Positions 890-14,853 of a stretch of 16,622 bases of DNA are shown one piece after another. The notes under the pieces are model-generated. The model did not search any database. It saw only the letters and a list, made by a program, of their open reading frames with translations, and had not been told where the DNA came from. Each line of letters opens with the position of its first letter. Position 1 is the stretch's first letter. The position numbers and the translations under genes were made by a program. The DNA lies in contig SBBD01000179.1 of the NCBI GenBank assembly GCA_005239845.1, forward strand, positions 1 through 16,622, given 5' to 3'. This DNA is from an archaeon. Lineage in GTDB: Archaea > Micrarchaeota > Micrarchaeia > Norongarragalinales > SBBD01.

Positions 890-910
890 ATTCATTTCCT
901 GCGCTGGAAA

Positions 911-926
911 CTTATAAACCTTTCCC
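911..926 (-). promoter_or_regulatory. purP promoter (BRE GGGAAAGG + TATA TTTATAAG)
   Basis: On the minus strand the sequence reads GGGAAAGG directly followed by TTTATAAG. The TATA centre is about 26 bp before the ATG at 889, so the transcript is predicted to be leaderless or nearly so. A second AT-rich stretch (TTTATATTTG, about 936-945) is a weaker alternative. The same GGGAAAGG element precedes the TATA box of the gene starting at 15168. Confidence 0.6.
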
Positions 927-951
927 GCTCGTTTCAAATATAAAGCGATAA

Positions 952-1671
952 TTAGGGGTTTTCCGCAACCAATTCGACTCTTCGCTTTCCCTGGCCCTTG
1001 CTTTCGACGTTCGTGATTTTGATGCTTCCGATTTCCTTCGTGTTCTTCACGTGCGTGCCGCCGCACGCCTGCAGATCAAAGCCCTTGATTTCAATGCAGC
1101 GGATGGTTTTCACGCTCTCCGGCACCAAATTTATTTGGGTGCGAATCAGTTCGGGGTTCTGGAGCGCTTCTTCTCTTGCAATAAAGTGCACGGCCGTCTC
1201 AAACCCTTTTGCGATGGCTTGGTTGGCTTTTTCCTCCATGAACTTCACTTGCTCGTCATTCAATTCCGCAAGCGAAAAGTCCATGCGCGCCCGTTCCTCG
1301 TAAATCTGCGAACCGGTAACGAGCGCATTGTAGGCATCCAGCACTACCCTCGAGAGCACGTGCAATGCCGTATGATGGCGCATGTGCCCGTAGCGGCGCT
1401 TCCAATCAATCACTCCGTGTACGGCATGAATGTGCGACGGCATCTCTTCCTTGAGTTTGTGCCTAATCTCTCCTGTTTCCTTCTGCCTGTAAACATCCAC
1501 GACGGGATATTCCTTGCCTTCCGCCACCAATTTTCCGGTGTCGTTCGGCTGGCCTCCGGAAGTATAGTAAAACGCCGTCTGGTCCAGCACGACTTCTTGC
1601 CCGTAATTCTTCACGATGGAGGCGTCGAACTCTTTCAAGTAACTGTCCTTCGAGCAAAGCATTTCCCTCAT
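952..1671 (-). CDS. alaX: AlaX, free-standing alanyl-tRNA editing protein
   Basis: This is a trans-editing hydrolase that removes serine or glycine wrongly attached to tRNA-Ala. It corresponds to the AlaRS editing domain without the synthetase core. At 239 residues it fits the AlaX-M class: an N-terminal beta-barrel part (YLKEFDASIV, DQTAFYYTSGGQPNDTG) followed by the second-additional-domain fold. The zinc site is intact, with HxxxH at H100 and H104 (HTALH) and CxxxH at C203 and H207 (CGGTH). Starts at TTG 1674, ATG 1671 and ATG 1662 are possible. ATG 1671 is chosen because GGCGAT lies 7 nt upstream and because the N-terminus then resembles other AlaX-M proteins. The gene follows gltX by 34 bp with no TATA box between, so co-transcription with gltX is likely. 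Confidence 0.93.
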   Translation of the reverse strand: MREMLCSKDSYLKEFDASIVKNYGQEVVLDQTAFYYTSGGQPNDTGKLVAEGKEYPVVDVYRQKETGEIRHKLKEEMPSHIHAVHGVIDWKRRYGHMRHHTALHVLSRVVLDAYNALVTGSQIYEERARMDFSLAELNDEQVKFMEEKANQAIAKGFETAVHFIAREEALQNPELIRTQINLVPESVKTIRCIEIKGFDLQACGGTHVKNTKEIGSIKITNVESKGQGKRRVELVAENP

Positions 1672-1705: not shown

Positions 1706-3424
1706 TTATCCGCTCAAAACGAAGGTTAGTTGGTTGCCTTCTTTTTTGTCCAGCCTGCAGAAGCCCACGCGCTCGAACTGCACGATTTGCCCTTCCTTTA
1801 ACTCAAGGCACGTCTTCTCGCAGTACCCCTTCCTTTCCTTCCAGCTATCCTCGTTAAAATCCCCTTTTTCGTCCAGCAAGTTGCCCACTTCGATTACCGT
1901 ACACCCCATGGCTTCCCCTTCCTCTCCAGAAACCCACTGAATTACTTTACTGGTTTGGGCATCTGCGGACGCCAACTCGCCCACGATTTCTTCCCTGTTT
2001 TCCATCTTTCTCTCATTGATTTTTACGGCAAACAATTCCTTCAAGCGAACCACTTCGCCTTCCTTCAAGCTGGCGGCATCCGTTCCAGAAACGTAGCATG
2101 AGTTCGCATAGCCTATGTTCCTTTTGTCCTTGCTGTTCCCCTTCTTGGGAATCAAAATGGATTGCCGTCTCTGTTCCTGCAGTCCGTACACGCTTAATTT
2201 CACGGGGTTCTCGACAAAGAAATAGTGTTCCGCAACCGGGTCCAGGAGGCGCCGGTTGATGTGCAGCAACTGCTCGAAGGTGGGAAAGCTCTCCTGCTTG
2301 CTCAACCCCAGCCCCAAGACGAACTCCTTGATGGCCTCCGGAAGAATTCCTCGTCTCCGCAATCCTCGAAGCGTGGGAAGGCGCGGGTCGTCCCAGTCGT
2401 TCACTTTCCCTTGCTCGATGAGGGGCTTGAGAAAGCGTTTGCTGAGCGCGGTGCCCTTGATGTTCAGGCGCGCAAAATCGTAGACGTACGGTTTCGGCAA
2501 ATTGACGGCGTTCAGAATCGCGTAGTACAATTCGTCCCTCAGCTCGTATTCTTTGCTCCGCAGGGCGTGCGTGATGTCCTCCAGAGAATCCGAGATGCTG
2601 ACCTCGAAGTCGTAGGTGGGCCACGCCTGGTACTTCTCCCCTTGCCGGTAATGCGGCGTCTGGATGACGCGGAACAGCGTGGGGTCCCTCATGACCGTGT
2701 TCTGGCTCTGCATGTCGCCCTTCAAGCGCAGCACCATTTTTCCTTTTTCCGCTTTTCCTTCTACCATGGCCTGCCACAGCATCACTTGTTCCCCGTCCTT
2801 TCTTTCCCTGCAGGCGCAGGCTTTCTTTTCATAGCGGTTCTGGTTCATTTCCTCGGGCTTGCACGTGCAGATGTACGCCCTTCCCAAAATCAGCAGCTTC
2901 TTTCCGAATTGTTGGAGGCGAGGCATTACGTCCGAGGTGAAGGAAACGCCTGCGAACCCGATGCCCAGCCAGTCGAGGTCTTCCTGGATGGCGTTGGCGT
3001 ATTCGAGCTTTTCCGTTTCGGGGTTCGTATCGTCGAAGCGCAGCTTGCATTTTCCCTGCCACTGCCTGGCAAACTCCCAGGAGAGCATGGCCGCCTTCGC
3101 GTGCCCCAAGTGCAGGTAGCCGTTGGGTTCCGGGAGAAAGCGCGTGACCACTTTCCCTTTCTCGGCGCCTTCCAAGTGCCAGACCTTTGGGCCTTCCTCT
3201 TTGTGCTTGAACTCGTACTTCTTGAGTTCCTCTTCCACTTGTTCTTTGGTGAGATGGTTCACTTGTCCGACAATTTCTTGAATCGCATTCATTGTGCTTT
3301 TCATGTCTTTCTTGGCGTCCGGGAATTCGGCGACGACTTTGCCGACGACGGCTCCTGCGAACGCCTTTCCGTACCCCAACGCATTCTTCAAGGCAAACTT
3401 TCGTATGATTTCTCTTAGTTCCAT
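1706..3424 (-). CDS. gltX: Glutamyl-tRNA synthetase, archaeal type
   Basis: This is a class I aminoacyl-tRNA synthetase that charges tRNA-Glu (and possibly tRNA-Gln, as archaeal GluRS is generally non-discriminating). The 572-aa protein has the archaeal helical N-terminal extension and the HIGH motif as HLGH at residues 105-108 within FLPEPNGYLHLGHAKAA. A cysteine knuckle (CTC at 186-188, CAC at 203-205) probably binds zinc. The KMSKS-equivalent LSKR is at about 327-330 (KGTALSKRFLK), and the C-terminal part is the GlnRS-like beta-barrel anticodon-binding region ending KEGNQLTFVLSG. An in-frame GTG at 3448 would add eight residues, but ATG 3424 (MELREIIRKFAL) matches the usual archaeal start. 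It is followed closely by alaX. The leader is unusual: it contains an imperfect copy of the gene's own first codons (see 3477-3509). Confidence 0.96.
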   Translation of the reverse strand: MELREIIRKFALKNALGYGKAFAGAVVGKVVAEFPDAKKDMKSTMNAIQEIVGQVNHLTKEQVEEELKKYEFKHKEEGPKVWHLEGAEKGKVVTRFLPEPNGYLHLGHAKAAMLSWEFARQWQGKCKLRFDDTNPETEKLEYANAIQEDLDWLGIGFAGVSFTSDVMPRLQQFGKKLLILGRAYICTCKPEEMNQNRYEKKACACRERKDGEQVMLWQAMVEGKAEKGKMVLRLKGDMQSQNTVMRDPTLFRVIQTPHYRQGEKYQAWPTYDFEVSISDSLEDITHALRSKEYELRDELYYAILNAVNLPKPYVYDFARLNIKGTALSKRFLKPLIEQGKVNDWDDPRLPTLRGLRRRGILPEAIKEFVLGLGLSKQESFPTFEQLLHINRRLLDPVAEHYFFVENPVKLSVYGLQEQRRQSILIPKKGNSKDKRNIGYANSCYVSGTDAASLKEGEVVRLKELFAVKINERKMENREEIVGELASADAQTSKVIQWVSGEEGEAMGCTVIEVGNLLDEKGDFNEDSWKERKGYCEKTCLELKEGQIVQFERVGFCRLDKKEGNQLTFVLSG

Positions 3425-3537
3425 TTGCTCACGTGGTAGGGGCGACACGCGTAGGGGGCTTGCTCCCTAGAGGGGTCGCACATTTGCGGATGATTTCCTG
3501 AAGTTCCATAGGGGTACTGCCCTTTCAAGAGTCCCAT
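3415..3537 (-). other. Possible leader ORF (40 codons) overlapping the gltX start
   Basis: An ATG at 3537 lies about 10 nt after the transcription start predicted from the gltX TATA box. It opens a 40-codon frame that ends in TAA at 3417-3415, so its stop overlaps the first codons of gltX. The peptide contains two cysteines and is proline- and tyrosine-rich; I recognise no domain. The same stretch can form short hairpins: CGCA-AATG-TGCG, an AGGG/CCCT arm, and AGGGAG...CCCCCT with one mismatch. It could be a translated leader, a structured untranslated leader, or chance. There is no Shine-Dalgarno sequence before its ATG. Confidence 0.25.
3477..3509 (-). repeat. Imperfect copy of the gltX 5' coding end
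   Basis: Reading from ATG 3509 gives MELQEIIRKCA, which matches the gltX N-terminus MELREIIRKFA at 9 of 11 residues and 24 of 33 nucleotides. Apart from the fourth codon, most differences are at third codon positions. The copy continues as a 26-codon frame that stops at TGA 3431-3429, five bases before the gltX ATG, and it is out of frame with gltX. It may be a remnant of a tandem duplication of the gene start. Confidence 0.5.
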
Positions 3538-3617: not shown

Positions 3618-4658
3618 CTATTGCAGGATGGGGGTGAAGGCGCTCGTGAGGAGGAAGTGCACCAAGAAAAAGATGCCGAGCGAAAGGGGCACGAACACGG
3701 GGATGAGCTTGACGCCCCATTGGGCCTTCCCATGCTGCAGCAAGCCGATCGTGAGGGCACTGAAGAACGAAGTGATGAAGATGGCGCTCATGGCGAACAG
3801 GCGGACGTCGTTGGAAGTGATTTGGGATGCGATCTTGCGGAAGGCGAAGCCTCCGAGCGGGCTGCCGCCTCCTCCGAGAGAGCTGGGCCCACGTTGCATG
3901 TTGCCGTAATCCACGCTTTGCTGGCGTGCCAGCATTTTTTCGTTCGTTTCCGAGTAGTACACCGAGACCGAGAAGAGCATGGGCGCCACGATCACGGCGG
4001 AAAAGACGATGAAGAGCGTGTAGCTGATGGTCGCGTTGCGGATTTCCTTTCGCAGGTCCTTGGTCTGCTTGATGCTGTCCGCCACTTCGTCCAGCAGGTT
4101 CGCGATTTCTCCGCCGAGTTCGATGCCTTCCGCCAAGAGGCTTGCGGAGCGCCTGAGGAGCTTCGAGTCCACGCGCGCCCCGAGTTCCTTGAGCGCGTCG
4201 CTGATGGGCTTCCCCGCGTACACGGCCACGCTCATGTGCCGGATTTCGTCGCCCAAGACCCCGAACTCGGGCTTGCTGACGCTCCACACCGCGTTTTCCA
4301 CGGTCATGCCCGCGCGGATGTTGGCCGCAATGATGCGCAGGGCTTCCGGCAAATTCTCTTCCACGGCCGACGCCCGGTTTTCCGCCGCGAAAAAGAGGAT
4401 GATGTAAAAGCCTCCCGCTACCGCGAGCAGCGTCCCCACGACGGCCCCGAATGGGATCCAGAAGGATTTGGGGTAGAATTGGTTGGCGACGACGCCCGCG
4501 AGCAGGGCTGCAACGAGCGTGAACAGGACCATGAAACCCGCGTACTTACGGGGGTCGATCGTCTCGAAGCCCGACTGGATGATGAGGCGCTCGAGGTTCC
4601 CGCGCATGCCCGTGGGAAGGAGCTGCGACAACACGAAGTACAAGCGGATCTTGACCAT
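3618..4658 (-). CDS. T2SF-family pilus assembly membrane protein (TadC-like)
   Basis: This 346-aa inner-membrane platform protein belongs to the type II secretion F / TadC / ArlJ family, which couples the assembly ATPase to pilin insertion. After a cytosolic N-terminus there are two membrane segments (about 38-60 and 66-91). A T2SF cytosolic module follows (NLPEALRIIAANIRAGMTVENAV; ELGARVDSKLLRRSASLLAEGIELGGEIANLLDEVADSI), then a segment at about 205-230, a glycine-rich linker (GGGGSPLGG) and two C-terminal membrane segments. It starts one base after the stop of the preceding T2SF gene (TGACATG), so the two are almost certainly co-translated. It is the last gene of the minus-strand pilus arm. 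A weak GC-rich hairpin follows the stop. The family is clear; the TadB versus TadC label is by position only. Confidence 0.88.
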   Translation of the reverse strand: MVKIRLYFVLSQLLPTGMRGNLERLIIQSGFETIDPRKYAGFMVLFTLVAALLAGVVANQFYPKSFWIPFGAVVGTLLAVAGGFYIILFFAAENRASAVEENLPEALRIIAANIRAGMTVENAVWSVSKPEFGVLGDEIRHMSVAVYAGKPISDALKELGARVDSKLLRRSASLLAEGIELGGEIANLLDEVADSIKQTKDLRKEIRNATISYTLFIVFSAVIVAPMLFSVSVYYSETNEKMLARQQSVDYGNMQRGPSSLGGGGSPLGGFAFRKIASQITSNDVRLFAMSAIFITSFFSALTIGLLQHGKAQWGVKLIPVFVPLSLGIFFLVHFLLTSAFTPILQ

Positions 4659-4659
4659 G

Positions 4660-5550
4660 TCAGATGTCCTCGATGGCGGGCCTCCGGCTTTTCACGAAAT
4701 CCATGAAAAAGATCTGGAACCCCAGCAGGAAGAGCAGGACGAAGGCGAAGAAAATGGGGGGCATGTCGACTCCTAAGAAGGAGACGATGACGAGCATCAT
4801 GGTGATGCCCAGCGAGGGAACGATGATGGCCGCCAGCATGTAAATCATGGTCCACGGGCTGAGCTCTTGTCCGTAGCGCCGGATGTCGTCGATGCGTTCT
4901 TTCGTCAAATCGCTGATGATTTCCTGGAGCGCGACGCCCACGTCCGTCCCCACCTTCAAGGCATTCGAGAGGTGCCAAAGGATGCGGCGGAGCTGCTTGG
5001 AGGGCGTGCGGTTGCTGGCCTCTTCAAACGTGATCTGGATGGGAATGCCTCCGTTGATGCGCTTGACCATGCGCCGGAATTCCTCGGAGGTGTACCCGTA
5101 GCCCGTGCAGATGCTGGCCATGCCGTCAAACAGGGGCACGCCGCTCTTGACTTGAATCAAGAGCTGCCGCATGGCGGGACTGAGCTCGTTGTCGATTTTA
5201 CGCGCACGCTTTCGGGCAATGAGTTCAGGGTAGTTGACAATCGTGGCAAACGAGACGACTCCGATGAAGAGCGCGGCCAGCGGAGCTTGCCAAAGCAAGT
5301 CATTGTTCTTGGTAATTTCAAGCAAGAACAGGCCTCCGCCTAAGAGGATGAGAAAGTTGAAGAAGGTGGCGACGAGGACCCTCGCCATGTATTGCTTGGC
5401 GTTCCAATCGCTCTCCACGTGGATGAGCTCCTCCCCCAAGTGCGGGTAGAGCGTGCTGGCCACGTTGCCGATGCGTTGGATGGTTTTCACTTGCGCAATC
5501 TTGTCCACGAGGGGGGGTGGAAGAAAGCTGAAGGGCAGCTGAAAGGCCAT
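4660..5550 (-). CDS. T2SF-family pilus assembly membrane protein (TadB-like)
   Basis: This is the second platform protein of the same family, 296 aa from ATG 5550. It has two N-terminal membrane segments (about 57-78 and 84-105). A T2SF module follows, containing ELSPAMRQLLIQVKSGVPLFDGM, FRRMVKRINGGIPI and LSNALKVGTDVGVALQEII. Two strongly hydrophobic segments lie near the C-terminus (about 228-260 and 267-288). A GTG at 5565 would overlap the ATPase stop. ATG 5550 is preferred because it lies 4 bp after that stop and a GGTGA motif is present about 11 nt upstream, but the GTG cannot be excluded. The two separate T2SF proteins probably act as a heteromeric platform, as TadB and TadC do in bacterial Tad systems. 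Confidence 0.88.
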   Translation of the reverse strand: MAFQLPFSFLPPPLVDKIAQVKTIQRIGNVASTLYPHLGEELIHVESDWNAKQYMARVLVATFFNFLILLGGGLFLLEITKNNDLLWQAPLAALFIGVVSFATIVNYPELIARKRARKIDNELSPAMRQLLIQVKSGVPLFDGMASICTGYGYTSEEFRRMVKRINGGIPIQITFEEASNRTPSKQLRRILWHLSNALKVGTDVGVALQEIISDLTKERIDDIRRYGQELSPWTMIYMLAAIIVPSLGITMMLVIVSFLGVDMPPIFFAFVLLFLLGFQIFFMDFVKSRRPAIEDI

Positions 5551-5554
5551 CGCC

Positions 5555-7183
5555 TTATTTTTCACCCAGGATGGCTTTGAGCTTCTTGCGGATGCTTTCC
5601 TTGGTCACTTTGGGTTCCTTGGGCTTTTCAGGCGCTGTAACCGCGGGGTGGGCGGGCAGGCTTTCGATTTCCGTCTCTAGGCGGGCTTCCAGCAAGGCTT
5701 GGGGGGGCTGGTTTTCGTCCACGATTTTGAGCAGGCGATGCTTGTCCTTATAGTATTCGGCGACCACGCGGCCCACGTCGTTTACGGACATAATGCCGTG
5801 CTTGAGCAGGTATTCGAGGACGCGCGTCCGGTCCCGGATTTCCGCCTGGATTTCTTTCGGAGTCATGCCGGTGTACAGGCTCAGCGTGTTGTAGAGCTTG
5901 ATGGACTCCCCCACTTTCTCGAGCTCGTCGCGCTGGGGGTTCCACCGGTACAATACGTTCGTGGACACCTTGTCTTCTTCCTCGATGAATTCTGCGATTT
6001 CAAAGACGCGGCGGAAGCCCGTCCTTCGCTGCCGGTACTGGATGACGACCATATTGATGGCGCTAAGCAAGAGCTCGGGAATGTTCACGGGAGGGTGGAT
6101 CAGACGGTTCTTCAGCTGAAAGACGTCTTCCGCGTGGAACGTGCTGAACACGGAATGCCCCGTGTGCATGGCCTCGAACAATACCTCGGCTTCCCGCTGC
6201 CTCCGGGTTTCCCCGAGGACGATGCGGTCGGGCCGCATGCGCAGGCTGTTGACCATGAGATCCAGCATCGTGATTTCCCCCTTGCCTTCCGTGTTCGGCT
6301 GGCGCGTGACCATGGGCGTCCAGTGCAAAAAGTCGGGAAGCACCAGCTCGCGCGTGTCTTCGATGCTTACGATACGCTGGTTCGGAGGCGTAAAGAGGAG
6401 GATGGCGTTCAGGAACGAGGTCTTTCCGCTGCCCGTTCCCCCTCCCACGATGATGTTCATCTCGTACTGCACGCACAGCCACAACAACGCGGCGACTTCG
6501 GGCGTAAGGGTTTTCACGTTGGGATCCAGCAGGTTGACGATGGTCCACGGGTCCGCGCGGAATTTACGAATCACGATGCTGTTGCCCTTGCTGGAAATGG
6601 GCAGCAGCACCGCATTGACGCGGTTTCCGGAAAGCAAGTTGGCGTCCATGAGCGGGTTGAGGGTCGTGATCTGCCTTCCCACTTTCCTTCCAATGATTTC
6701 CGAATAGTTCTGGACTTGTTCTTCCGTAGGAATGCGGATGTTGCTTTTCAGCCAGCCGAACTTGCGATGGTAGACCCACACGTTTTCTTTTGCGGAGTTG
6801 ACGATGACTTCCTCGAGTTGGGGGTCCGCCAGCATGAGCTCCAAGTCGCCCAGCCCCAGCATTTCCTGCAACAGTCTCCCCGCCAGGAAGCTCTCTTCGT
6901 CCTTTGTGGCGTCGGAAAACTCCCGCTTCAGCAGCTCCTTGGCCTTCTTCTGGAAGGTGCGGCGGATGGCCTCGTCTTCTGATTTAGAGACCAAGTCCGA
7001 AACCTTGAGGTCTACGCTTTCAATGATGCGCTCTTTCAGCTTTTCGAGCACGGCCCGCGTGGCCGGGTTCAAGTGCGGATACTCGACTTCGTACTCGTTC
7101 AGGAACTGGTCTTCGCGCTGCACGACGCGAACGTCCGCGACCACTTGCTCGCTTTCCACCTTGTAGGCGGCCAATACTTTCAT
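5555..7183 (-). CDS. Pilus/secretion ATPase (TadA/VirB11/ArlI superfamily)
   Basis: This 542-aa hexameric ATPase powers assembly of the pilin-like proteins encoded on the opposite strand. Residues 1-220 form the N-terminal domain, including LGDLELMLADPQLEEVIVNSAKENVWVYHRKFG. The RecA-like core has Walker A GGGTGSGKTS (K254), an Asp box (IVSIEDTRELVL), Walker B RIVLGE (E325) and a His box (TGHSVFSTFHAE). About 100 residues after the core include a TPKEIQAEIRDRTRVLEYLL segment and a charged lysine-rich tail. All catalytic motifs are intact. It begins 160 bp after the winged-helix gene. An AT-rich box at 7207-7220 would start a transcript close to ATG 7183, so it may also be expressed separately. 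Function within the superfamily is inferred from the neighbouring T2SF and pilin genes. Confidence 0.95.
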   Translation of the reverse strand: MKVLAAYKVESEQVVADVRVVQREDQFLNEYEVEYPHLNPATRAVLEKLKERIIESVDLKVSDLVSKSEDEAIRRTFQKKAKELLKREFSDATKDEESFLAGRLLQEMLGLGDLELMLADPQLEEVIVNSAKENVWVYHRKFGWLKSNIRIPTEEQVQNYSEIIGRKVGRQITTLNPLMDANLLSGNRVNAVLLPISSKGNSIVIRKFRADPWTIVNLLDPNVKTLTPEVAALLWLCVQYEMNIIVGGGTGSGKTSFLNAILLFTPPNQRIVSIEDTRELVLPDFLHWTPMVTRQPNTEGKGEITMLDLMVNSLRMRPDRIVLGETRRQREAEVLFEAMHTGHSVFSTFHAEDVFQLKNRLIHPPVNIPELLLSAINMVVIQYRQRRTGFRRVFEIAEFIEEEDKVSTNVLYRWNPQRDELEKVGESIKLYNTLSLYTGMTPKEIQAEIRDRTRVLEYLLKHGIMSVNDVGRVVAEYYKDKHRLLKIVDENQPPQALLEARLETEIESLPAHPAVTAPEKPKEPKVTKESIRKKLKAILGEK

Positions 7184-7343: not shown

Positions 7344-7937
7344 TTAGGGCTTGAGGCGGAAGAGACGGCTCACGTTTTGGAGGAAGCGGTTGCCGAACCC
7401 TTTCTTTCCGCGGTGTTTTACCACTTCGCCTTCGAATTTTTTCATTTCTTCGCGAACGCCGGCCGTTTTCTTTTGCTCGTCCGCCAGCTGCATCTGGATT
7501 TGTTCCAAGTCGTTGAGCAGTTCTTCAACCCGCCGCTTGAGCTCGTCCAGGTCGTCTCCCCGCAAGTCCAGCTCCTCGATTTCGCGGAAGTGCTCGCGGA
7601 TGATATCCAAGCGCCGTTCCACGTCTTTTTGGGAGAAGACCACCATCCCCGCCACGGACCGCACTTCGTCGTGGATTTCGATGAGGCGTTCGAGCACCGT
7701 CTTTTTCCGCTCTTGGGGCGCCTTGCTTTCCTCTTTGTTGACGAGCTGCGGCGTGAGGCGGATTCCGGAGAACTCGTATTTGAGGTGGATGAGGCCGCTT
7801 TCCGCCAGGATCTCGGCGATTTCCTCCACTTGCTTCGCGGAAAGGGAGAGTGCCCGGGCCGCTTCCTCTACGCTCGTGGACTTCTTGAGCCGGATGAATT
7901 CCACCAGGCGGTCAATGGAGGTGTCGAGCTGGCTCAT
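7344..7937 (-). CDS. Winged-helix/coiled-coil protein of the pilus locus
   Basis: This 197-aa protein of unknown function is the first gene of the minus-strand pilus arm. Residues 1-60 look like a winged-helix domain (LVEFIRLKKSTSVEEAARALSLSAKQVEEIAEILAESGLI), which could bind DNA or mediate protein contacts. A long, highly charged coiled coil runs from about 75 to 170 (ERLIEIHDEV, REHFREIEELDLRGDDLDELKRRVEELLNDLEQIQMQLADEQKK). A basic tail follows (KKGFGNRFLQNVSRLFRLKP). There is no signal peptide or membrane segment, so it should be cytosolic. A TATA box centred about 26 bp before the ATG predicts a leaderless transcript. It could regulate the divergent promoter or be a cytosolic structural partner of the ATPase; the sequence does not decide. 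Confidence 0.75.
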   Translation of the reverse strand: MSQLDTSIDRLVEFIRLKKSTSVEEAARALSLSAKQVEEIAEILAESGLIHLKYEFSGIRLTPQLVNKEESKAPQERKKTVLERLIEIHDEVRSVAGMVVFSQKDVERRLDIIREHFREIEELDLRGDDLDELKRRVEELLNDLEQIQMQLADEQKKTAGVREEMKKFEGEVVKHRGKKGFGNRFLQNVSRLFRLKP

Positions 7938-8027: not shown

Positions 8028-8435
8028 ATGCGCGCCCAATCGGCCTTGGAGTACCTCATCTTGCTCGGCATTAGCTTGGCCGTCCTCGTTCCGTTGTGGC
8101 TCTACGTCAGCAGCCAAGTGGGCACGACGCGGCAAGACCTGCAGGTCACGTACGCTCGCTTGGCCGTAGACAAAATAGCGGACGCAGCGGACTTGGTGTA
8201 CGTGCAAGGTCCGCCTTCCCAGATTTCGGTGGTCGTTACGCTTCCAGACAACATTATTTCAACGCGCGTGGACTCCAAGGAGATCCTGCTGCAGCTCTCC
8301 ACGCCTGGCGGTGCGTCCGACGTGTACGCGGTCACGCTCGGGAATGTTTCAGGGGCTATTCCAACGCGTCCAGGCCCCATCCGCTTGCTCGTCAAGTCCG
8401 AAGGCACGTACGTAAATATTACAGAAGGGGGTTGA
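8028..8435 (+). CDS. Class III signal peptide pilin-like protein
   Basis: This 135-aa protein begins MRAQSALEYLILLG, an archaeal class III (EppA-type) prepilin signal. Q4 follows a short basic leader, E8 is the conserved glutamate at mature position +5, and a hydrophobic helix runs to about residue 27. The third mature position is Ala rather than the usual Ser. Cleavage is expected just before Q4. The remainder is a small beta-rich domain with few charges (SQISVVVTLPDNIISTRV, IRLLVKSEGTYVNIT) and two N-x-S/T sequons. It is the first gene of the plus-strand arm and probably a major or structural pilin. The ATG has a TATA box 25 bp upstream and no ribosome binding site. Confidence 0.87.
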   Translation: MRAQSALEYLILLGISLAVLVPLWLYVSSQVGTTRQDLQVTYARLAVDKIADAADLVYVQGPPSQISVVVTLPDNIISTRVDSKEILLQLSTPGGASDVYAVTLGNVSGAIPTRPGPIRLLVKSEGTYVNITEGG

Positions 8436-8436
8436 C

Positions 8437-8832
8437 ATTCGACTGCAGTCCGGAATTGAAATGGTGGCTTTCGTCGGCTTTCTCGTGATTTTGTTCCTGG
8501 TGTTTGCCGGCGCCTCCATTCAGCGACAAGGGGAAGTGCTCCGCTCGCAGTACCTCGTGGAAGCCGAACGCATCGGCACGCTGGTGGCCACGCACATCAA
8601 CACGGCTGCTTCCGTCGGAGACGGCTATTCCGCCAATTTCACGCTTCCCCCCGACCTGCAAGGCGCTCCCTACTACTTCTTGTCTTTTCCGGAAGAAGAG
8701 CGCATCGTCGTCGTGTGGGGAACCCAAAACGCCAGCTTCTCCGCCCCGGTTTCCACGTCTCAGCTCCTTTTCAATGTCACCTCGACGAGCGTACGCGTAC
8801 GAAACCAGCAAGGAATCGTCTATGTCGAATAA
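8437..8832 (+). CDS. Second class III pilin-like protein, probable ATT start
   Basis: The reading frame contains RLQSGIEMVAFVGFLVILFLVFAGAS, a class III prepilin signal laid out exactly like the upstream gene (start-R-L-Q-S-G-I-E versus M-R-A-Q-S-A-L-E). No ATG, GTG or TTG exists in frame upstream of it back to the stop at 8413-8415. The codon at the expected start is ATT (8437), one base after the previous gene's TGA, with GGGGGTTGA just before it resembling GGAGGTGA. An ATG at 8461 would give 123 aa but would remove the Q-S-G-I-E cleavage motif. From ATT the protein is 131 aa, with a hydrophobic N-terminal helix and a short extracellular beta domain. Confidence in the gene is good; the start is the open question. 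Confidence 0.75.
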   Translation: MRLQSGIEMVAFVGFLVILFLVFAGASIQRQGEVLRSQYLVEAERIGTLVATHINTAASVGDGYSANFTLPPDLQGAPYYFLSFPEEERIVVVWGTQNASFSAPVSTSQLLFNVTSTSVRVRNQQGIVYVE

Positions 8833-9436
8833 ACACCTGACAAAAAGCATGAAATCGAAGTCCTTTCCTGCCATGGCCCTCGAAGCGGCTCCTCCCAAAA
8901 TGCAATCCCTAAGCCGCAGGAGAGAATTTCGGGGCTTGCTGTCCGGTGACTTTGTCGTAGGCCTCGTGGTCTTCGTAGTCGTGCTCTCCTTCCTGCTTCC
9001 GCTGGCGGATGACCTTTGGCGACAGACCTCTACGGTTTCAGAAGAACGTCACCTCCAAGGACAGGCGCTTTCCGTATCCGATCTGCTGCTCCGCAGCCCG
9101 GGCTATCCCTCGGATTGGAACGAGACGACCGTGCAAAGCATCGGTCTTGCGAACGAGGAACACGTCTTGAATTCGACGAAGGTACTGCGCTTCTTGAATG
9201 TGCTGAACGCCGACTATTATACGGCAAAAAGCAGGTTGGGGTTGCCTTCAGCGCACGTGAACTTTTCCGTGACGGACAAAACGGGTGCTCCCCTGGTGTT
9301 GGAAGGCAACCTTACGCAGTATACGCGCAGCGAACCTCCCACCTCCAACGCGTTTTCCGTAAAGCGGCTTGCCCTCGTGCAGCTGAACGCGACGCACCGC
9401 CAGCTGGTTAACCTGAACGTCGTGGTTTGGAAATGA
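8822..9436 (+). CDS. Membrane-anchored pilin-like surface protein
   Basis: This 204-aa protein has a basic N-terminal extension, then RGLLSGDFVVGLVVFVVVLSFLLPLADDL, a single hydrophobic helix (about residues 44-64) like archaeal pseudopilin-type anchors. The extracellular part has the pattern GYPSDWNETTVQSIGLA...LNSTKVLRFLNVLNADYYTAKSRLGL...VNFSVTD, which I associate with proteins in archaeal pilus loci. It ends LNVVVWK. ATG 8822 overlaps the upstream gene by 11 bp and has AAGGA 7 nt before it, which favours it over the internal ATG 8900 that has no ribosome binding site. Its own stop overlaps the next start as ATGA. It is probably a minor pilin. The exact role is unknown. Confidence 0.82.
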   Translation: MSNKHLTKSMKSKSFPAMALEAAPPKMQSLSRRREFRGLLSGDFVVGLVVFVVVLSFLLPLADDLWRQTSTVSEERHLQGQALSVSDLLLRSPGYPSDWNETTVQSIGLANEEHVLNSTKVLRFLNVLNADYYTAKSRLGLPSAHVNFSVTDKTGAPLVLEGNLTQYTRSEPPTSNAFSVKRLALVQLNATHRQLVNLNVVVWK

Positions 9437-12400
9437 AGCGCAACGAAAAAGAAGTTAGTGGAAATGAGAAAAAAGGCTTTAGCGAGGAGGCGGGAGGTCG
9501 GCGACATTTTGTTCGGCCCACCCTGAAGACGAAAAGCATTGTGTTTACGTTGGATGCGTCGTTTGCGCTCCTGCTCGTGCTGGCCGTGGTGCCCGCGTTG
9601 CTGCTCCTAGTTGCGCAGCCTGTTCCAACGCATCGTTTCGCGGAATACTTGCACGCGCTCGCCGAAGATACGGTGGACGTGTTGGCGTTGACGCGTGTTT
9701 CCGACGTGCGGAACGAGCCCGTCGTCCAAGACTTGTTTGCCCAAGGCATGCTCGACGACAGTGACTTGAACCGTTCGTTGTTGGATGTCGCGGGCTTGTA
9801 TTGGAGCGCTAACAATTCAGGGAATTGGACTGCTGCAGGCAATCTTTCGCAGCAGTTGCTTTCCCCCTTCTTGCCGCAACCCCTAAAGTGGGAGTTCCAA
9901 GTAGGCGGAGATGTCCTTTACAATTCCACGAATCGCACCAATTCCAGCATTTGGGTTTCTTCCGTCAGCAGGAGAGCGGCTTCAGGGTTCAGCAAATCCG
10001 CTCCCACGACGGGCTACGTGGCGCGCGCCTTTCTTGAAAACGTGGTGGGCACAGACGTTTCCTCGTACTTTTTTTTCGGGGGCTTTGTGGGCCAGGGCAA
10101 CCTGACGGCGACCCTCTACGACATTCCTTTGGACGCCAACCTCTCCAAACTGTATTTGGAAATGAAGGCAGGAACTGGCTTCAATTTTTACGTGAACAAC
10201 GTTTTCTGCCAAAGCATGTCGGTGACGCCGGGGAACTTTTCGGTCGACAACTGGACGATTACCGACTCCCTCTGCTTGAACGCGGTCTTGCCCGGAGCCA
10301 TCAACAACTTTTCCCTCAACTTTTCTTCCTCCAACTTTTCCGACCAGTTTGTAGGCGGAGGCTACTTGAAGGCCGTCTATTCTACTCAACAGCTCGTGAG
10401 CGGAGGAAACGGCCTCGCCTACTACCGTTTTCCGGGCATCCAGGGCCTCGTGAACCTTTATGACTCGTTTTACGTTCCCGGCAACATTACGGCCATGAGC
10501 GCCAACCTCACCTTTTATACTAACAGCAACTACTCGACGCTGTTGTGGATCGGCAACACCACCGTCTTGAACCACACGGGCACCAACCAGACGATTACCG
10601 CCTTCATTTCCGATGCCGACTTCCAAGCCAACTTCAGCGCCAACAACGTTACGTACGCCATGCTCAGCAATTCCAGCATCCCGTTGCGCATGCTGACGAG
10701 TGCCAACATCTCGGGCGGCCTCATCAACGGCACCGTGGACATCGTGCTCATTACGGATACTTCGGGAAGCATGTCGTGGCGCTTGAACCAAGACGGCGTG
10801 GGTGGCAATTCCATCACGAACTGCAGCGATCCCAATCTCTACCTTTCCACTACTTCCCGCATCTCGCTGGCGCGTTGCCTGGACAAGGACTTCGTCAACG
10901 CCATTTTGGGAGGCAACGCCTCGTCGTGCAGCAGCGGCCAGCCCGTGGAAGGCAACCGCGTGGCCCTGGTAGATTTCGGGGCTTCGGAAAAGAACTGGAC
11001 GGCGCTCACAGACGATATTGGTTACCTCACGGGAGTGATTGACAGTTATACGGCGACGGGCGGCACGTGCATTTCGTGCGGCATCAACCGGGCCTACCAA
11101 ATCTTCAACTCCTTCAGCAACGCCAACCGCTCGAAATACATCGTGGTTATGACGGACGGCGTTGCCAACTATCGCACGACTCCCGAATGCTATGACTTGA
11201 ATGACGTGGGGCTCGTTTTTGCCGTTGGGGAAAGCGGCGCTCACGTCCAACGCACGCCGCCATGGTTTGACCCCAGTGGCGGAGGAGCAAGTGACGCGTT
11301 CAACCGCATTTCCGCCCTCAACAGCTCCGTGGCCCGAGCAGGCGCTGACGGGGGAGAGATTTACCGCTGGAACGGCACGGCCTGGCTCTTGGAAACGGAT
11401 ACGGGAAGCAGCAACGTGTACGGCATCGACGTGTGGAACGAAACGTTGGGGTTTGCGGTGGGAGCCAGCGCCAAAATATGGCGGTGGAACGGCGCGTCGT
11501 GGTCGGAAACCAACGATTTCGGGTCTTTCAACTTTTGGAGCGTGGCCGTCCTCAACAGCTCGTGGGCTTTTGCGGTCGGGGATGCGGGCCGCATCTACTA
11601 CTGGAACGGAGCGGCATGGAACAGCTTTACTACCGTAGGCGGGGGCAGTTACAACTTGTATGGCGTCGACGGCTTGAACGCTTCGCAAGGTGGGCCGTTG
11701 GCGTACGCCGCAGGAGCCAGCGGAAAAATTTACGTGTGGGCCGGAGGAAGCTGGAGCGAAGCCACGGACACGGGAAGCAACACGCATTACGACGTAAGCG
11801 CGCTCAACAATTCGCTGACGTTCACGGCCTCCTCTAACGGAAGAGTATACCAAGGAAACGCTTCCTCTTGGTCGAGCACCGTGCTCACGCCTTCCTCGTC
11901 GTACCCCTTGAAAGGTGTTCATGCCGTGAACGGGACGCTGGCCTATGCCGTTGGAGACCCCCGCGGCGACGTCTACGAGTGGAACGGGGCCACGTGGTCG
12001 CGCACGTACTCCCGCTTCTACTACGAGGGCAACAGCACGACCGGTTTGTACTGCAGCGACAATGACAGCTGTTCTTTGGACATTACGCAATCCTATCCTG
12101 CCTTGAACGCCAACTATTCTACGGCAAGAGTGTTCTCCGCGTTCAACAACCTTACCGTCGATTCCGTGGGCTTCGGGCCCATTGCGACGTGCCAGCTCGG
12201 CAACGACACGGTGACGGAGATCGCACGAACCGGCAACGGCAGCTCCTACAGCAGCGCGAATGCCACGGAATTGAAGGACATTTACTGCCAGATCGCGCAG
12301 AACATTTTGACGAAACAAACCGAAACCCAGCAAGTCGTACCCCAAGGAAGCTTTGTCAACGCCATTCTGGACCCCTCCTCCTTCATCCGCTTCGTGTACA

Positions 12401-13161
12401 CCCCAGACGTAGCGCCTCCCGGCTACCAGGAAATCACGCTCAACGCAGAAACGACGACGTTTCCCTTATGCGAAGGCGGCTTCTTCTTGAGTCCCGGCAT
12501 GACGTTGACGGACGCCCGCCTCACCTCGTACTCTGGATTCTATTGGACGAAGGGAGGCTACGTGCGCAACTCGCTCACGGGAGGCACAAATCAAAGCGTA
12601 TTCAACTTGAGCGTCTACGGCCCGAATTATTCCACGTTGGGCGACCCCTACTCCGTCTACCTCCCGGTTTCGCTGCTGTCCTTAAACGAGACGAATTACG
12701 TGGTGGACGAGCTGGGATTGAACCGCTCCTATTCAAGTCCCAATTGTTCCTCGAGCAACCGCGTCATTTACACGCTGCGCCTGAGGGCCTACGCGCCCCT
12801 CCAAGGCGTGTTTCAGCAATTGAACGGCAGCAACGTCACCGTCTACTTCGACCGGGACCATGACGGCATTGCGGACGAGTTCGTCTACGTGAGTGTGGGC
12901 GCCGGCCTTCCGAACTTTAATGCAACTCCCATCCTCGTCAGCGACTTGAACCCCGCAAACAATGCGTTGCACGACGCGCTGCTGCGGTTGCTCGACCAGA
13001 TCAACTTCGTTGTTACGGCAGGGAACTCGGGGCGTTCTGGCGGGCAGACGAATCCCGTAGACGTCCTGCTTTCGGGGAACGTGAAAATCGAGACGGACGT
13101 GCTCACGTTCATTCCCTACGTCTGGGGCCCCGTTGATATGAATGTGGTGGTGTGGGCGTGA
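9433..13161 (+). CDS. Giant vWA-domain pilus protein with inserted beta-propeller (TadG-like position)
   Basis: This is a 1242-aa anchored extracellular protein, probably the adhesin or tip component. After a hydrophilic N-terminus of ~36 residues comes a pilin-like anchor (FTLDASFALLLVLAVVPALLLLVA). Next is a beta-rich segment with dense N-x-S/T sites, including YYRFPGIQGLVNLYDSF. A vWA domain starts at about 437 with a complete MIDAS: DTSGS (D442, S444, S446), T545 and D575. From about 589 to 859 the vWA domain is interrupted by seven propeller-like repeats. It resumes with VDSVGFGP and ends near residue 970. The C-terminal domain carries a DRDHDGIADE calcium-type loop (D1140-E1149) and ends MNVVVWA. 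ATG 9433 overlaps the upstream stop (ATGA); an in-frame TTG at 9427 is less likely. There are about 50 N-glycosylation sequons. Confidence 0.88.
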   Translation: MKRNEKEVSGNEKKGFSEEAGGRRHFVRPTLKTKSIVFTLDASFALLLVLAVVPALLLLVAQPVPTHRFAEYLHALAEDTVDVLALTRVSDVRNEPVVQDLFAQGMLDDSDLNRSLLDVAGLYWSANNSGNWTAAGNLSQQLLSPFLPQPLKWEFQVGGDVLYNSTNRTNSSIWVSSVSRRAASGFSKSAPTTGYVARAFLENVVGTDVSSYFFFGGFVGQGNLTATLYDIPLDANLSKLYLEMKAGTGFNFYVNNVFCQSMSVTPGNFSVDNWTITDSLCLNAVLPGAINNFSLNFSSSNFSDQFVGGGYLKAVYSTQQLVSGGNGLAYYRFPGIQGLVNLYDSFYVPGNITAMSANLTFYTNSNYSTLLWIGNTTVLNHTGTNQTITAFISDADFQANFSANNVTYAMLSNSSIPLRMLTSANISGGLINGTVDIVLITDTSGSMSWRLNQDGVGGNSITNCSDPNLYLSTTSRISLARCLDKDFVNAILGGNASSCSSGQPVEGNRVALVDFGASEKNWTALTDDIGYLTGVIDSYTATGGTCISCGINRAYQIFNSFSNANRSKYIVVMTDGVANYRTTPECYDLNDVGLVFAVGESGAHVQRTPPWFDPSGGGASDAFNRISALNSSVARAGADGGEIYRWNGTAWLLETDTGSSNVYGIDVWNETLGFAVGASAKIWRWNGASWSETNDFGSFNFWSVAVLNSSWAFAVGDAGRIYYWNGAAWNSFTTVGGGSYNLYGVDGLNASQGGPLAYAAGASGKIYVWAGGSWSEATDTGSNTHYDVSALNNSLTFTASSNGRVYQGNASSWSSTVLTPSSSYPLKGVHAVNGTLAYAVGDPRGDVYEWNGATWSRTYSRFYYEGNSTTGLYCSDNDSCSLDITQSYPALNANYSTARVFSAFNNLTVDSVGFGPIATCQLGNDTVTEIARTGNGSSYSSANATELKDIYCQIAQNILTKQTETQQVVPQGSFVNAILDPSSFIRFVYTPDVAPPGYQEITLNAETTTFPLCEGGFFLSPGMTLTDARLTSYSGFYWTKGGYVRNSLTGGTNQSVFNLSVYGPNYSTLGDPYSVYLPVSLLSLNETNYVVDELGLNRSYSSPNCSSSNRVIYTLRLRAYAPLQGVFQQLNGSNVTVYFDRDHDGIADEFVYVSVGAGLPNFNATPILVSDLNPANNALHDALLRLLDQINFVVTAGNSGRSGGQTNPVDVLLSGNVKIETDVLTFIPYVWGPVDMNVVVWA
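11197..12018 (+). repeat. Seven ~39-residue beta-propeller blades within the vWA gene
   Basis: Repeat units share the pattern (V/L)xGVxxLNxSxAFAVGxxGxIYxWNGxxWxxxTDTGSxx. Clear blades begin near FNRISALN (11299), VYGIDVWN, FWSVAVLN, LYGVDGLN, HYDVSALN and LKGVHAVN. A degenerate first blade begins near LNDVGLVFAVG (11197), with an altered GSGAHVQ/PPWFDPSGG loop. The AVG...G.I..WNG.W signature resembles Ycf48/BNR-type propellers. Nucleotide similarity between blades is modest, so this is not a recent tandem duplication. Confidence 0.75.
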
Positions 13162-14108
13162 CTTCCTTCGGAAAGCGGAAGGGCGTGCTGTATTCCGTCA
13201 TCGCTGTCACTGTTCTGGCGCCGCTCTTGTTTTACTTGGTCGTCTACTTGAATTCCTTGCAGACCCAAGAAGAGCACACGGTGTTGAAAGTGCGGGGGGT
13301 CGAACTGGCGAACTACATGGAGTCCATTTCGCTGGACGTGCCCCGCATTTTGGACATCACGTCGAAGCTCGCATTCGTCGCCGCGTTGAACGAAATTGAC
13401 GCCAACGGTACCCCCTTGGATGACGCCCGCCTCCGCCTTCAGGAACTCATGCGGAATGGAACGTTGTACGGAAGCAATTCCACATTCTTGAATTCAAGCA
13501 ACTTGGGCGACTGGTCGGACCGCATGGAACAACTGGGCACGCGGTTCGGCTTGCAAACCAACGTCACCATTTCCAACCTGAATATTTCTTTGTCGAACAG
13601 CTTCACGCTCAACTTTTCCATGAACGTCATCGTCAATTCCACGGACCCGCTCACGCAGATTCGTGTGGATCGCGCCTACTTCCAAACCGCCCTGGTTTCC
13701 GTGGAAGGGTTCGAGGATCCCCTTTATCCTCTTGAAACGAATGGCTTCGTGAAACGCATCGTCAACCGCACGGTTCTTCCTCAAAACATTTCTGCCGTAA
13801 ACAACGCTTCCTTGTACAAGCTCTATTGGAGTTCTTCGGAAGGAGCCAGTTTCCTGGATCGCATGGAAGGCCGCTACTACCTTTCTGCCGCGTACAACGT
13901 CACAGGCACCGAGGGGCTCGAAAGCTTCGTGGACCTCGCCGAGATTTCTGCAGTAGGCGTCTCCGTCAGGACCAACCAGAGCGTCGTGGACTTCAACTAT
14001 TTCAGCCCCTTGACCATTGACGGGTGCCCCGTCGTGAACGCCTCCTACTCTTGGTTCAAGCTCGACAGCAGCAGCGCCTCGAAATACAACGTCAACGCCT
14101 CTTGCTAA
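13158..14108 (+). CDS. Anchored surface protein of the pilus locus
   Basis: This is the last gene of the plus-strand arm: 316 aa from GTG 13158, which overlaps the preceding TGA as GTGA; an in-frame GTG at 13152 would add two residues. GGTGGTG lies about 4-10 nt before GTG 13158. A short basic N-terminus (SFGKRKG) precedes one membrane helix (VLYSVIAVTVLAPLLFYLVVYLNSL). The outside part contains ELANYMESISLDVPRILDI, a VSVEGFEDPLYPLETNGFVKRIV segment and SFLDRMEGRYYLSA, and has about 15 N-x-S/T sites. I recall similar DPLYPL...G and FLDRLEG patterns in archaeal pilus clusters but know no assigned function. Operon position suggests a minor pilin or an anchor partner of the vWA protein. No clear terminator follows on this strand. 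Confidence 0.82.
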   Translation: MTSFGKRKGVLYSVIAVTVLAPLLFYLVVYLNSLQTQEEHTVLKVRGVELANYMESISLDVPRILDITSKLAFVAALNEIDANGTPLDDARLRLQELMRNGTLYGSNSTFLNSSNLGDWSDRMEQLGTRFGLQTNVTISNLNISLSNSFTLNFSMNVIVNSTDPLTQIRVDRAYFQTALVSVEGFEDPLYPLETNGFVKRIVNRTVLPQNISAVNNASLYKLYWSSSEGASFLDRMEGRYYLSAAYNVTGTEGLESFVDLAEISAVGVSVRTNQSVVDFNYFSPLTIDGCPVVNASYSWFKLDSSSASKYNVNASC

Positions 14109-14172: not shown

Positions 14173-14853
14173 CTAGAGTTGCAGCAACATTTCTTCCAGC
14201 AGTTTTTTCGGGTCCCTGCTCTTCACGTACGCGCTCGCCAAAAGCACGCCTTCCGCTCCCAATTCCCTCGACTTCGCGACGTCCTCTGCCGTTGAAACTC
14301 CTGCCCCCACGAGCACCACGGTGCGCGGACTTATTTTCTTGATTTCTTTTACCGAATGCGTGACGATTTCGGGCTTTGTCGTGCTCACGGAAACGCCTTT
14401 CCCGATGAGCTCCGGAGGCTCTACGGCGATGCAGGGCGGATGAAAAGCCGCGATTTGCTTGGCTTCCTCCACGCTGTCCGCGCAAACGATCAGCTCGAGT
14501 CCCACTTTCCGCGCATGTTCAATCGTTTTCCTCACGTTTTCCAGCCCGATTTTTTTCTCGGAATGATTCAGCAAGCTGCCCGGGATTCCATTTTCCAGTA
14601 ACGTCTCCGCGGCCACGCTTCCCGTGAACGCCCCCTGCGAAACGACGTCCACGTGCTGCGCAAAAATGCGGAAATGGGGACTCGGAGGAAATTGTTTTGA
14701 GAGCCGTGCCAGTTCTGGAGCCTGAGGGCAAACGATGACGTGCTTCTTGTGCTTTTCCGCCACTTCCTTGGCTATCCGCACCAATGGTTCCGTCTTTCCT
14801 GCCGTGGCTTCCGGATACGTTTTCAAGTTCAAAACTAACAGCGGCGTATCCAT
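14173..14853 (-). CDS. tpiA: Triosephosphate isomerase (archaeal short form)
   Basis: This cytosolic TIM-barrel enzyme interconverts glyceraldehyde-3-phosphate and dihydroxyacetone phosphate in glycolysis and gluconeogenesis. At 226 aa it matches the short archaeal form, which assembles as tetramers in characterised relatives. The substrate-binding N9 and K11 (NLKTY), catalytic H97 (LLNHSEKK) and catalytic E145 (AVEPPELIGKG) are all present. So are the phosphate-binding loops (GAGVSTAEDV and EGVLLASAYV). ATG 14853 gives the usual N-terminus (LLVLNLKTY). GAGG lies 10 nt upstream, so this is a led rather than leaderless start. The gene is 69 bp downstream of the small tail-anchored gene and has no visible TATA box of its own, which suggests co-transcription. 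Confidence 0.96.
   Translation of the reverse strand: MDTPLLVLNLKTYPEATAGKTEPLVRIAKEVAEKHKKHVIVCPQAPELARLSKQFPPSPHFRIFAQHVDVVSQGAFTGSVAAETLLENGIPGSLLNHSEKKIGLENVRKTIEHARKVGLELIVCADSVEEAKQIAAFHPPCIAVEPPELIGKGVSVSTTKPEIVTHSVKEIKKISPRTVVLVGAGVSTAEDVAKSRELGAEGVLLASAYVKSRDPKKLLEEMLLQL

What the first reader, a model, noticed from the sequence alone, without database searches (positions are those of the whole stretch)
11197..12018. Seven-bladed beta-propeller apparently inserted inside a vWA domain
The vWA domain has a full MIDAS (D442/S444/S446, T545, D575). Directly after the MTDG strand the sequence leaves the vWA pattern for about 275 residues that divide into one degenerate and six clear ~39-residue blades (AVG..G.I..WNG..W). 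It then returns to VDSVGFGP...IARTGNGS...LKDIYCQIAQNIL, which looks like the last vWA strands and helices. A propeller on top of a metal-dependent adhesion domain recalls the integrin head, where a vWA (I) domain is instead inserted into a propeller, so this would be the reverse topology. The repeats are seen directly; the fold and insertion are inference.
Basis: partly seen in the sequence, partly recalled or inferred. Interest (0 to 1): 0.78.

Follow-up and report, generated by a model that had tools for sequence, protein, structure and literature searches.

The report
Pilus protein with swappable propeller head
A large surface-filament (pilus) protein of a tiny archaeon carries a complete seven-bladed propeller plugged into one loop of its metal-binding adhesion domain, and relatives leave that loop empty, fill it with another repeat domain, or carry propellers exchanged between distant lineages, so it looks like an interchangeable gripping head.

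Summary
ORF 9427-13161 encodes a 1244-aa pilin-like protein in an archaeal type IV pilus locus. A YCF48-type seven-bladed beta-propeller (residues 591-860; 11197-12006) sits inside its vWA domain, in the loop just after the MIDAS aspartate. Three lines agree: insert-lacking homologs align to both vWA halves; AlphaFold2 gives vWA strand order interrupted only by the propeller (pLDDT 91.5, pTM 0.89); family profiles match pilus vWA adhesins and Ycf48. The integrin comparison holds only as reversed topology, by analogy.

Of 164 relatives with both anchors found, about 88 carry this propeller, 4 a different ~50-residue repeat domain, about 72 a short loop. Propellers are reticulate: eight proteins (six on a Pacearchaeota-type chassis, two on a Micrarchaeota-type one) share one propeller clade and nine another, while the chassis rejects both groupings (AU p 1e-41, 5e-58).

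Most likely function: a MIDAS-bearing minor pilin at a pilus tip, with the propeller as exchangeable recognition head. Ligand, metal and tip location are inferred. New variant of the vWA pilus-adhesin kind.

The parts
9427..13161 (+). Pilin-like vWA-propeller protein, 1244 aa from TTG 9427 or 1242 aa from ATG 9433
9550..9612 (+). N-terminal hydrophobic, pilin-like helix (residues 42-62)
   Evidence: model helix 7-27 (model residue + 35); family consensus KxGxxFSxDAxxAL
9892..10701 (+). N-terminal beta-rich stalk (residues about 156-425)
   Evidence: strands
10735..11157 (+). vWA N-terminal half (residues 437-577): b1, a1, b2, b3, helices, b4
   Evidence: (PF13519, E 4.6e-8)
10756..10770 (+). 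MIDAS motif DTSGS (D444, S446, S448)
   Evidence: invariant columns of the 77-row alignment
11065..11067 (+). MIDAS T547
11155..11157 (+). MIDAS D577 at the end of strand b4; the insertion loop follows directly
11197..12006 (+). Inserted seven-bladed YCF48-like beta-propeller (residues 591-860)
12007..12093 (+). Exit linker with conserved cysteines (CSDNDSC; residues 861-889)
12094..12315 (+). vWA C-terminal half (residues 890-963): helix, b5, helix, b6, helix
12334..13158 (+). C-terminal beta-rich stalk (residues 970-1244)
13152..14108 (+). Pilin-like partner gene directly downstream; similar gene (tblastn E <= 1e-5) in 48 of 55 parsed loci
8028..8435 (+). Small pilin with a weak class III signal-peptide match (E 0.039, below Pfam cut-off)
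   Evidence: similar gene in 27 of 55 loci
8461..8832 (+). Small pilin-like protein; similar gene in 9 of 55 loci
8828..9436 (+). Pilin-like gene just upstream; true start unclear, 8828 is where the piece used as query begins; similar gene in 21 of 55 loci
5555..7183 (-). T2SSE/FlaI-family assembly ATPase
4660..5565 (-). T2SSF (FlaJ/TadC-type) platform protein 1
3618..4658 (-). T2SSF (FlaJ/TadC-type) platform protein 2

Best explanation
The protein is a large minor pilin (adhesin) of an archaeal type IV pilus, in a genome that is Micrarchaeota-type judging by the names of its closest relatives. An N-terminal hydrophobic helix puts it into the filament, beta-rich stalk segments carry the head, and the head is a vWA domain whose MIDAS binds a divalent metal. 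In the loop that follows the MIDAS aspartate, the chain leaves the vWA, folds a complete seven-bladed YCF48-type propeller, and returns to finish the vWA. The propeller therefore sits beside the metal site as an accessory recognition head. That loop is an evolutionary socket: empty in many homologs, filled by another repeat domain in some, and refilled with propellers exchanged between chassis lineages. Shown: nesting (alignment plus predicted model), locus context, socket states, chassis/propeller conflict. Inferred: tip position, metal binding, adhesion, and that propeller exchange changes what is bound (a host cell or surface).
For: Nesting. Closed seven-bladed propeller. Profile matches of the vWA to Mfa5, cell-wall-anchored pilus adhesins and PilB, and of the propeller to Ycf48; Foldseek of the whole model lists Mfa5 6to1 at E 4.8e-8. 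MIDAS columns invariant in a 77-row alignment. Locus: ATPase, two T2SSF, small pilins; assembly ATPase beside the vWA gene in 35 of 55 parsed loci, 28 of the 41 with at least 12 kb held. Two prepilin-peptidase-family matches in the own genome. Socket. Exchange. Precedent: PilB of Streptococcus sanguinis, a vWA pilin adhesin with arms at the MIDAS (PMC8179133, passages).
Against: No experiment. Full-length pTM is only 0.54, so stalk/head orientation and tip exposure are unsure. The class III signal-peptide family does not hit this protein (E up to 1). 13 of 41 loci with 12 kb or more held show no ATPase match, among them two of the propeller-bearing ones (L075, L086) and L099. The own genome has several other T2SSE-family matches (7 in all), so this is not its only such machine. 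In the PilB paper the metal-less mutant still bound fibronectin and fibrinogen in vitro, so a MIDAS need not be the binding site (PMC8179133, passages). A vWA pilin-like protein in another species is proposed to be a mechanosensor (PMC12607857, passages). For the window's own nearest relatives the propeller conflict is not significant (AU p 0.13), so exchange is shown for other branches of the family, not for this copy.
Confidence: 0.68

Rival explanations
1. Pilus mechanosensor or assembly primer: the vWA head senses tension or primes filament assembly (as proposed for CpaL and PilY1) and the propeller serves protein-protein contacts inside the tip complex, not external recognition.
For: CpaL, a Tad minor pilin-like protein with a vWA split by a beta-rich insert, is proposed as a mechanosensor (PMC12607857, passages); Ycf48 is solved bound to a peptide (PDB titles).
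Against: Dispensable and exchangeable propellers fit a changing partner better than a fixed internal one. In P0035 a GH115_C-type domain (PF17829, E 5e-14) lies inside the propeller region.
Confidence: 0.22
2. Base or anchor protein (TadG-like) or filament-associated surface protein rather than a tip subunit.
For: TadG-type vWA proteins are hypothesised to anchor pili (PMC4858521, passages); the tip position here is not shown.
Against: Most vWA profile matches are pilus or fimbrial adhesin chains; no TadG-type family was among the three Pfam families listed for this protein.
Confidence: 0.1
3. Ordinary tandem arrangement: vWA ends near D577, the propeller follows, and residues 861-970 are an unrelated domain.
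For: Pfam matches stop at residues 578-587.
Against: Insert-lacking homologs, PF00092 across the empty site, PilB over both halves, strand order in the model.
Confidence: 0.02
4. Assembly chimera or gene fusion artefact.
For: The window is one 16.6-kb contig of a 195-contig, 70%-complete genome assembly.
Against: 86 to 88 proteins have the same arrangement, some on contigs over 100 kb.
Confidence: 0.01

Closest known systems
PilB of Streptococcus sanguinis (7b7p; PMC8179133, passages seen)
   Same: Minor type IV pilin with a vWA/MIDAS module and extra elements (two arms) beside the MIDAS; direct role in adhesion. Profile of the insert-less relatives aligns over both vWA halves.
   Different: PilB's arms are small; here a whole seven-bladed propeller is inserted, in a far larger archaeal protein.
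CpaL of Caulobacter Tad pili (PMC12607857, passages seen)
   Same: Minor pilin-like protein whose vWA is formed by two chain sections separated by a beta-rich insert.
   Different: CpaL's insert lies between the DxTxS motif and the MIDAS threonine (residues 204-384, T470) and is described as two six-stranded barrels; here it lies after the MIDAS aspartate and is a YCF48-type propeller.
Fimbrial/pilus vWA adhesins: Mfa5 (6tnj, 6to1), RrgA (2ww8) and GBS104 (3tw0, 3tvy; this name recalled, the record says cell wall surface anchor family protein)
   Same: vWA head; profile matches E 1e-8 to 5e-4.
   Different: Other pilus types; only their vWA part is matched.
Ycf48/HCF136 photosystem II assembly propeller (5ojp, 2xbg; PF14870)
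   Same: Seven-bladed propeller with matching repeat sequence (family profile E 2e-6; Foldseek ranks 2 and 5-7).
   Different: Cellular role unrelated; stand-alone there, nested in vWA here. The family profile's best propeller match by E-value is another chain, 9ya3 H (TLAP2, E 3e-8).
PilY1 and Saccharibacteria PilX2 (PMC12206443, passages seen)
   Same: Pilus-associated proteins with a seven-bladed propeller, proposed as adhesins; PilY1 also has a vWA domain (PMC12607857, passages).
   Different: PilX2's propeller is C-terminal with RCC1 repeats; PilY1's is C-terminal too (recalled). The PilY1 Pfam family was not among the matches here.
Integrin alpha-subunit head (recalled)
   Same: vWA (I) domain and seven-bladed propeller combined by insertion.
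   Different: Reverse nesting: there the vWA sits in the propeller; different propeller type. Analogy only.

Membership tests
vWA domain (PF13519/PF00092) with MIDAS | DxSxS, T and D of the MIDAS | tested here: met
   D444/S446/S448, T547, D577, invariant columns of a 77-row alignment
vWA domain (PF13519/PF00092) with MIDAS | Alternating strand/helix order with the complete C-terminal half | tested here: met
   Model order b1-a-b2-b3-a-a-b4-[propeller]-a-b5-a-b6-a; PF00092 spans the empty site in P0101; PilB aligned over both halves
vWA domain (PF13519/PF00092) with MIDAS | Metal actually bound | not testable with these tools
   Needs protein
YCF48-type seven-bladed propeller (PF14870) | Seven blades closed into a ring | tested here: met
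YCF48-type seven-bladed propeller (PF14870) | Sequence match to the family | tested here: inconclusive
   Window protein: PF14870 not among its Pfam matches; its insert alone finds no PDB sequence at E 0.1; the family profile matches Ycf48 chains at E 2e-6; relative P0082 matches PF14870 at 3e-15, P0064 at 2e-5 below the cut-off
Modular type IV minor pilin (PilB kind) | Prepilin-type N-terminus | tested here: inconclusive
   Hydrophobic N-terminal helix and conserved KxGxxFSxDA, but no class III signal-peptide match for this protein
Modular type IV minor pilin (PilB kind) | Encoded in a pilus assembly locus | tested here: met
   ATPase, two T2SSF, small pilins; ATPase nearby in 35 of 55 parsed loci
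Modular type IV minor pilin (PilB kind) | Located in the filament; mediates adhesion | not testable with these tools
   Needs cells or protein
PilY1 (Neisseria_PilC family; name and accession PF05567 recalled) | Match to the family's own C-terminal propeller domain | tested here: not met
   Not among the three Pfam families listed at E up to 1
Integrin head | vWA inserted between blades of the propeller (recalled) | tested here: not met
   Nesting is the other way round

The most novel reading that the evidence does not exclude
The loop behind the MIDAS aspartate is a plug-in socket of DPANN pilus adhesins. Whole recognition heads (YCF48-type propellers, a second ~50-residue repeat domain) are inserted, lost and exchanged there between archaeal phyla while the pilus chassis stays put, so that the head sets which host cell or surface the symbiont grips and head exchange is how host range shifts.
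Probability: 0.35. Interest if true: 0.85.

Novelty: new variant of a known kind. Interest (0 to 1): 0.68.

Why it matters
How DPANN archaea recognise the cells they live on is largely open (general knowledge). This gives a concrete candidate family, with module borders, empty-socket relatives and natural head exchanges, so the question becomes testable with purified heads. For protein evolution it is a clear case of a complete closed propeller nested in a vWA loop next to the MIDAS, the reverse of the integrin arrangement, with the same loop filled by at least two different repeat domains.

Tried and rejected
Tandem (non-nested) reading: rejected. Assembly artefact: rejected. Exchange in the window's own closest relatives: identities suggested it (P0008 chassis 638 of 925, propeller 130 of 259; P0006 chassis 488 of 919, propeller 170 of 262), but the AU test did not reject a shared clade (p 0.13 for P0001+P0003+P0008, 0.07 for P0001+P0008), so I do not claim it. 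Single origin of the propeller on the chassis tree: rejected (AU p 1.2e-6, 53 propeller rows against 56 of 59 insert-less rows; P0101, P0108 and L037 were left out because they lie among propeller-bearing rows). The window's insert alone against PDB sequences: nothing at E 0.1; the family profile finds 9ya3 H (TLAP2) and then Ycf48. The listed rows of the structure searches are almost all propellers, so the vWA fold rests on sequence profiles and strand order; Mfa5 6to1 is the one vWA row that I recognise among the 50 listed (rmsd 20.5 over 802 gapped columns, so no rigid match). Variability by loop (DA 2.50, BC 2.12, CD 2.05, AB 1.83 bits) hints that DA loops vary most, but that script labelled the three strands of blade 1 as B, C, D instead of A, B, C, and it is too weak to name a binding face. 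Literature searches without a paper: Micrarchaeota + type IV pili + von Willebrand; YCF48 + archaea + pilin (58); 'propeller domain inserted' + von Willebrand factor (61); receptor-binding + pilus tip + domain swapping + archaea + recombination (74); Pacearchaeota + pilin + vWA (75). DPANN + von Willebrand factor + adhesion listed one paper on vesicles (PMC11944275, listing only); of the four papers listed only PMC12607857 was opened.

Full report
What is there. The ORF at 9427-13161 (+) encodes 1244 residues from a TTG, or 1242 from the ATG at 9433. Pfam finds VWA_2 at 440-578 (E 4.6e-8), a sub-threshold VWA at 508-587, and nothing in the repeats. The MIDAS residues D444, S446, S448, T547 and D577 are present and are invariant columns of an alignment of this head with 76 relatives.

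The repeats are real. Residues 591-866 have a 39-residue period that 0 of 2000 shuffles reach. TRF finds no DNA tandem repeat at 10700-12400.

The insertion is shown by homologs without it. A protein search returned 149 relatives (120 listed). In an alignment of 20 of those 120, ten rows without this propeller (P0095, P0097, P0099-P0101, P0104-P0108) and one with a different domain before strand b4 (P0115) align to the query on both sides of the propeller: MTDG before it, and the stretch ending in the VDSVGFGP...GNGS...IA region after it; P0112 in the same alignment has a different insert at the same place. Pfam PF00092 runs from profile position 31 to 172 of 174 across the empty site in P0101, and 9 of 11 insert-less proteins match PF00092. 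A profile of those 11 aligns with the S. sanguinis PilB structure 7b7p over positions 387-632 (E 4.4e-5), which is both halves.

Relatives by sequence. A profile of the family matches 13 PDB sequences at E 0.01: for the vWA Mfa5, 3tw0/3tvy (GBS104, name recalled), 4rck and PilB; for the propeller 9ya3 H (TLAP2, E 3e-8) and Ycf48 chains (best E 2e-6). The window's propeller alone finds nothing in the PDB at E 0.1.

Setting. On the other strand lie a FlaI/T2SSE ATPase (5555-7183) and two T2SSF proteins (4660-5565, 3618-4658); around the ORF lie small pilin-like genes. From genome contigs 240 candidate stretches were found and 80 loci kept; my anchors parsed the gene in 55. In these 55 (tblastn E <= 1e-5) the ATPase is near the gene in 35, the ATPase with at least one T2SSF in 30, and the downstream partner in 48; among the 41 with 12 kb or more held the ATPase is found in 28, so 13 lack it there. 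Of the eight parsed propeller-bearing loci, five (L050, L067, L072, L079, L095) have ATPase and both T2SSF; L043, L075, L086 show only pilin-like partners (and in L075 the 7344-7937 neighbour) in the DNA held. The own genome (1.19 Mb, about 70% complete) has two prepilin-peptidase-family matches, seven T2SSE-family matches and one VWA_2 match, this gene. Of 60 genomes searched (the own one included) 12 have a match at E 0.001 or better; some are weak and partial.

The loop is a socket. In the 226 proteins listed by two searches (seeded with this protein and with L099, so the proportions follow the queries), 173 have the DxSxS pattern and 164 both anchors (9 missed): 86 carry the propeller, with a distance between anchors of median 338 (5-95%: 327-375); two more (P0204, P0208) hit the propeller model although the anchor rule called them short; 4 (P0112, P0121, P0123, P0166) carry a different ~50-residue repeat domain; 72 have a short loop. 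L099 carries that second domain too. In an earlier, partly overlapping and partly redundant set, 110 of 112 long-loop rows matched the propeller model and none of 60 short-loop rows did. The second repeat type has close relatives that cover 97-99% of the vWA-plus-insert query (P0121-P0124). A second insertion place, just before strand b4, is aligned in P0046 and P0115; by anchor distance 10 of the 164 rows have something extra there.

Propellers are exchanged between chassis. Taxon words here come from source names and record titles of some rows and their tree neighbours. On a tree of the chassis (114 rows, insert left out) propellers occur in two separated groups, one mainly Micrarchaeota (39 rows) and one next to Pacearchaeota (14 rows), and one clade of all propeller rows is rejected (AU p 1.2e-6). 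Inside the Micrarchaeota group the insert-less P0101 is sister to P0074 (support 100), which suggests a loss or gain there. The propeller tree does not follow the chassis: L003/P0026 are 58% identical in the propeller and 38% in the chassis, while P0016/P0064 are 38% and 55%; over all 1326 pairs the two identities still correlate (r 0.78), so much of the history is shared. With a mixture model on 32 rows the chassis holds the 14 Pacearchaeota-type rows together (support 100), whereas the propeller rejects that (AU p 1e-89) and instead groups P0015, P0020, P0016, P0023, P0024, P0026, P0027, P0038 (support 99) and P0074 with eight Pacearchaeota-type rows (support 99.9); the chassis rejects both groupings (p 1e-41, 5e-58). 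These groups were named after seeing the earlier trees, and the trees are quick ones. In 30-residue windows of P0016, the chassis relatives P0064/P0068 are closer in 16 of 17 windows before residue 511 and in 10 of 10 after 810, and the other-lineage P0020/P0015 are closer in 8 of 10 windows between. In P0074 the better match to the other lineage extends into the vWA, so there the whole head may have moved; P0074 is known from one contig only. For the window's own nearest relatives exchange is not significant.

How it most likely works. vWA minor pilins act as adhesins in bacteria: PilB of S. sanguinis binds fibronectin and fibrinogen through its vWA and has two arms flanking the MIDAS, although the metal-less mutant still bound them in vitro (PMC8179133, passages). 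CpaL shows that a vWA pilin-like protein can carry a beta-rich insert (predicted structure; PMC12607857, passages). Propeller-bearing pilus proteins are proposed adhesins in PilY1 and Saccharibacteria PilX2 (PMC12206443, passages). I infer a metal-dependent pilus adhesin with the propeller as exchangeable head. Pili in contacts of ultra-small cells with hosts are reported in work cited by PMC9938205 (passages). Tip position, metal and ligand are not shown here. A survey of archaeal type IV pili mentions, in the passages I saw, vWA proteins as regulators and TadG in bacteria as a possible anchor (PMC4858521).

Novelty. vWA pilus adhesins with extra elements at the MIDAS are known, so this is a new variant of a known kind. 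The nested closed propeller and the reuse and exchange at one loop I did not find in print in the searches named under Tried and rejected.

Noticed in passing
L099 ORF at 9959-13492; P0112, P0121, P0123, P0166: The same vWA loop is filled by a different ~50-residue repeat domain (FNVTG..W.LI.G...G.F.GYYW.G..W), about five copies; the search with it also lists long proteins with beta-helix Pfam domains and no vWA match.
   Followed up: partly
L095 3.2-13 kb: Two vWA-propeller genes on one contig; the longer one (1701 aa) has a 771-residue insert that matches the propeller model in five stretches, perhaps two propellers.
   Followed up: partly
P0035: A GH115_C-type domain (PF17829, E 5e-14) lies inside the propeller region of this relative.
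   Followed up: no
P0046, P0109, P0111, P0115; by anchor distance also P0191, P0195, P0199, P0202, P0221, P0226: A second insertion place in the vWA, just before strand b4, holds other domains; P0046 uses both places.
   Followed up: partly
P0090, P0091, P0093, P0096: Long bacterial proteins, named pilin-like, Patescibacteria or Uhrbacteria by their sources, with many YCF48-type repeats; P0093 has a type IV pilin N-terminal methylation motif (PF07963). A parallel use of these repeats on pilin-like proteins in another ultra-small group.
   Followed up: no
L029, L087: MAG contigs titled Coatesbacteria and Kaiserbacteria carry a member of this archaeal family; perhaps misbinned contigs or transfer.
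   Followed up: no
window 1706-3448 (-), 14173-14853 (-), 2-1066 (-): Neighbouring ORFs look like glutamyl-tRNA synthetase, triosephosphate isomerase and a PurP-like enzyme (recognised by eye from the translation, recalled, not tested).
   Followed up: no
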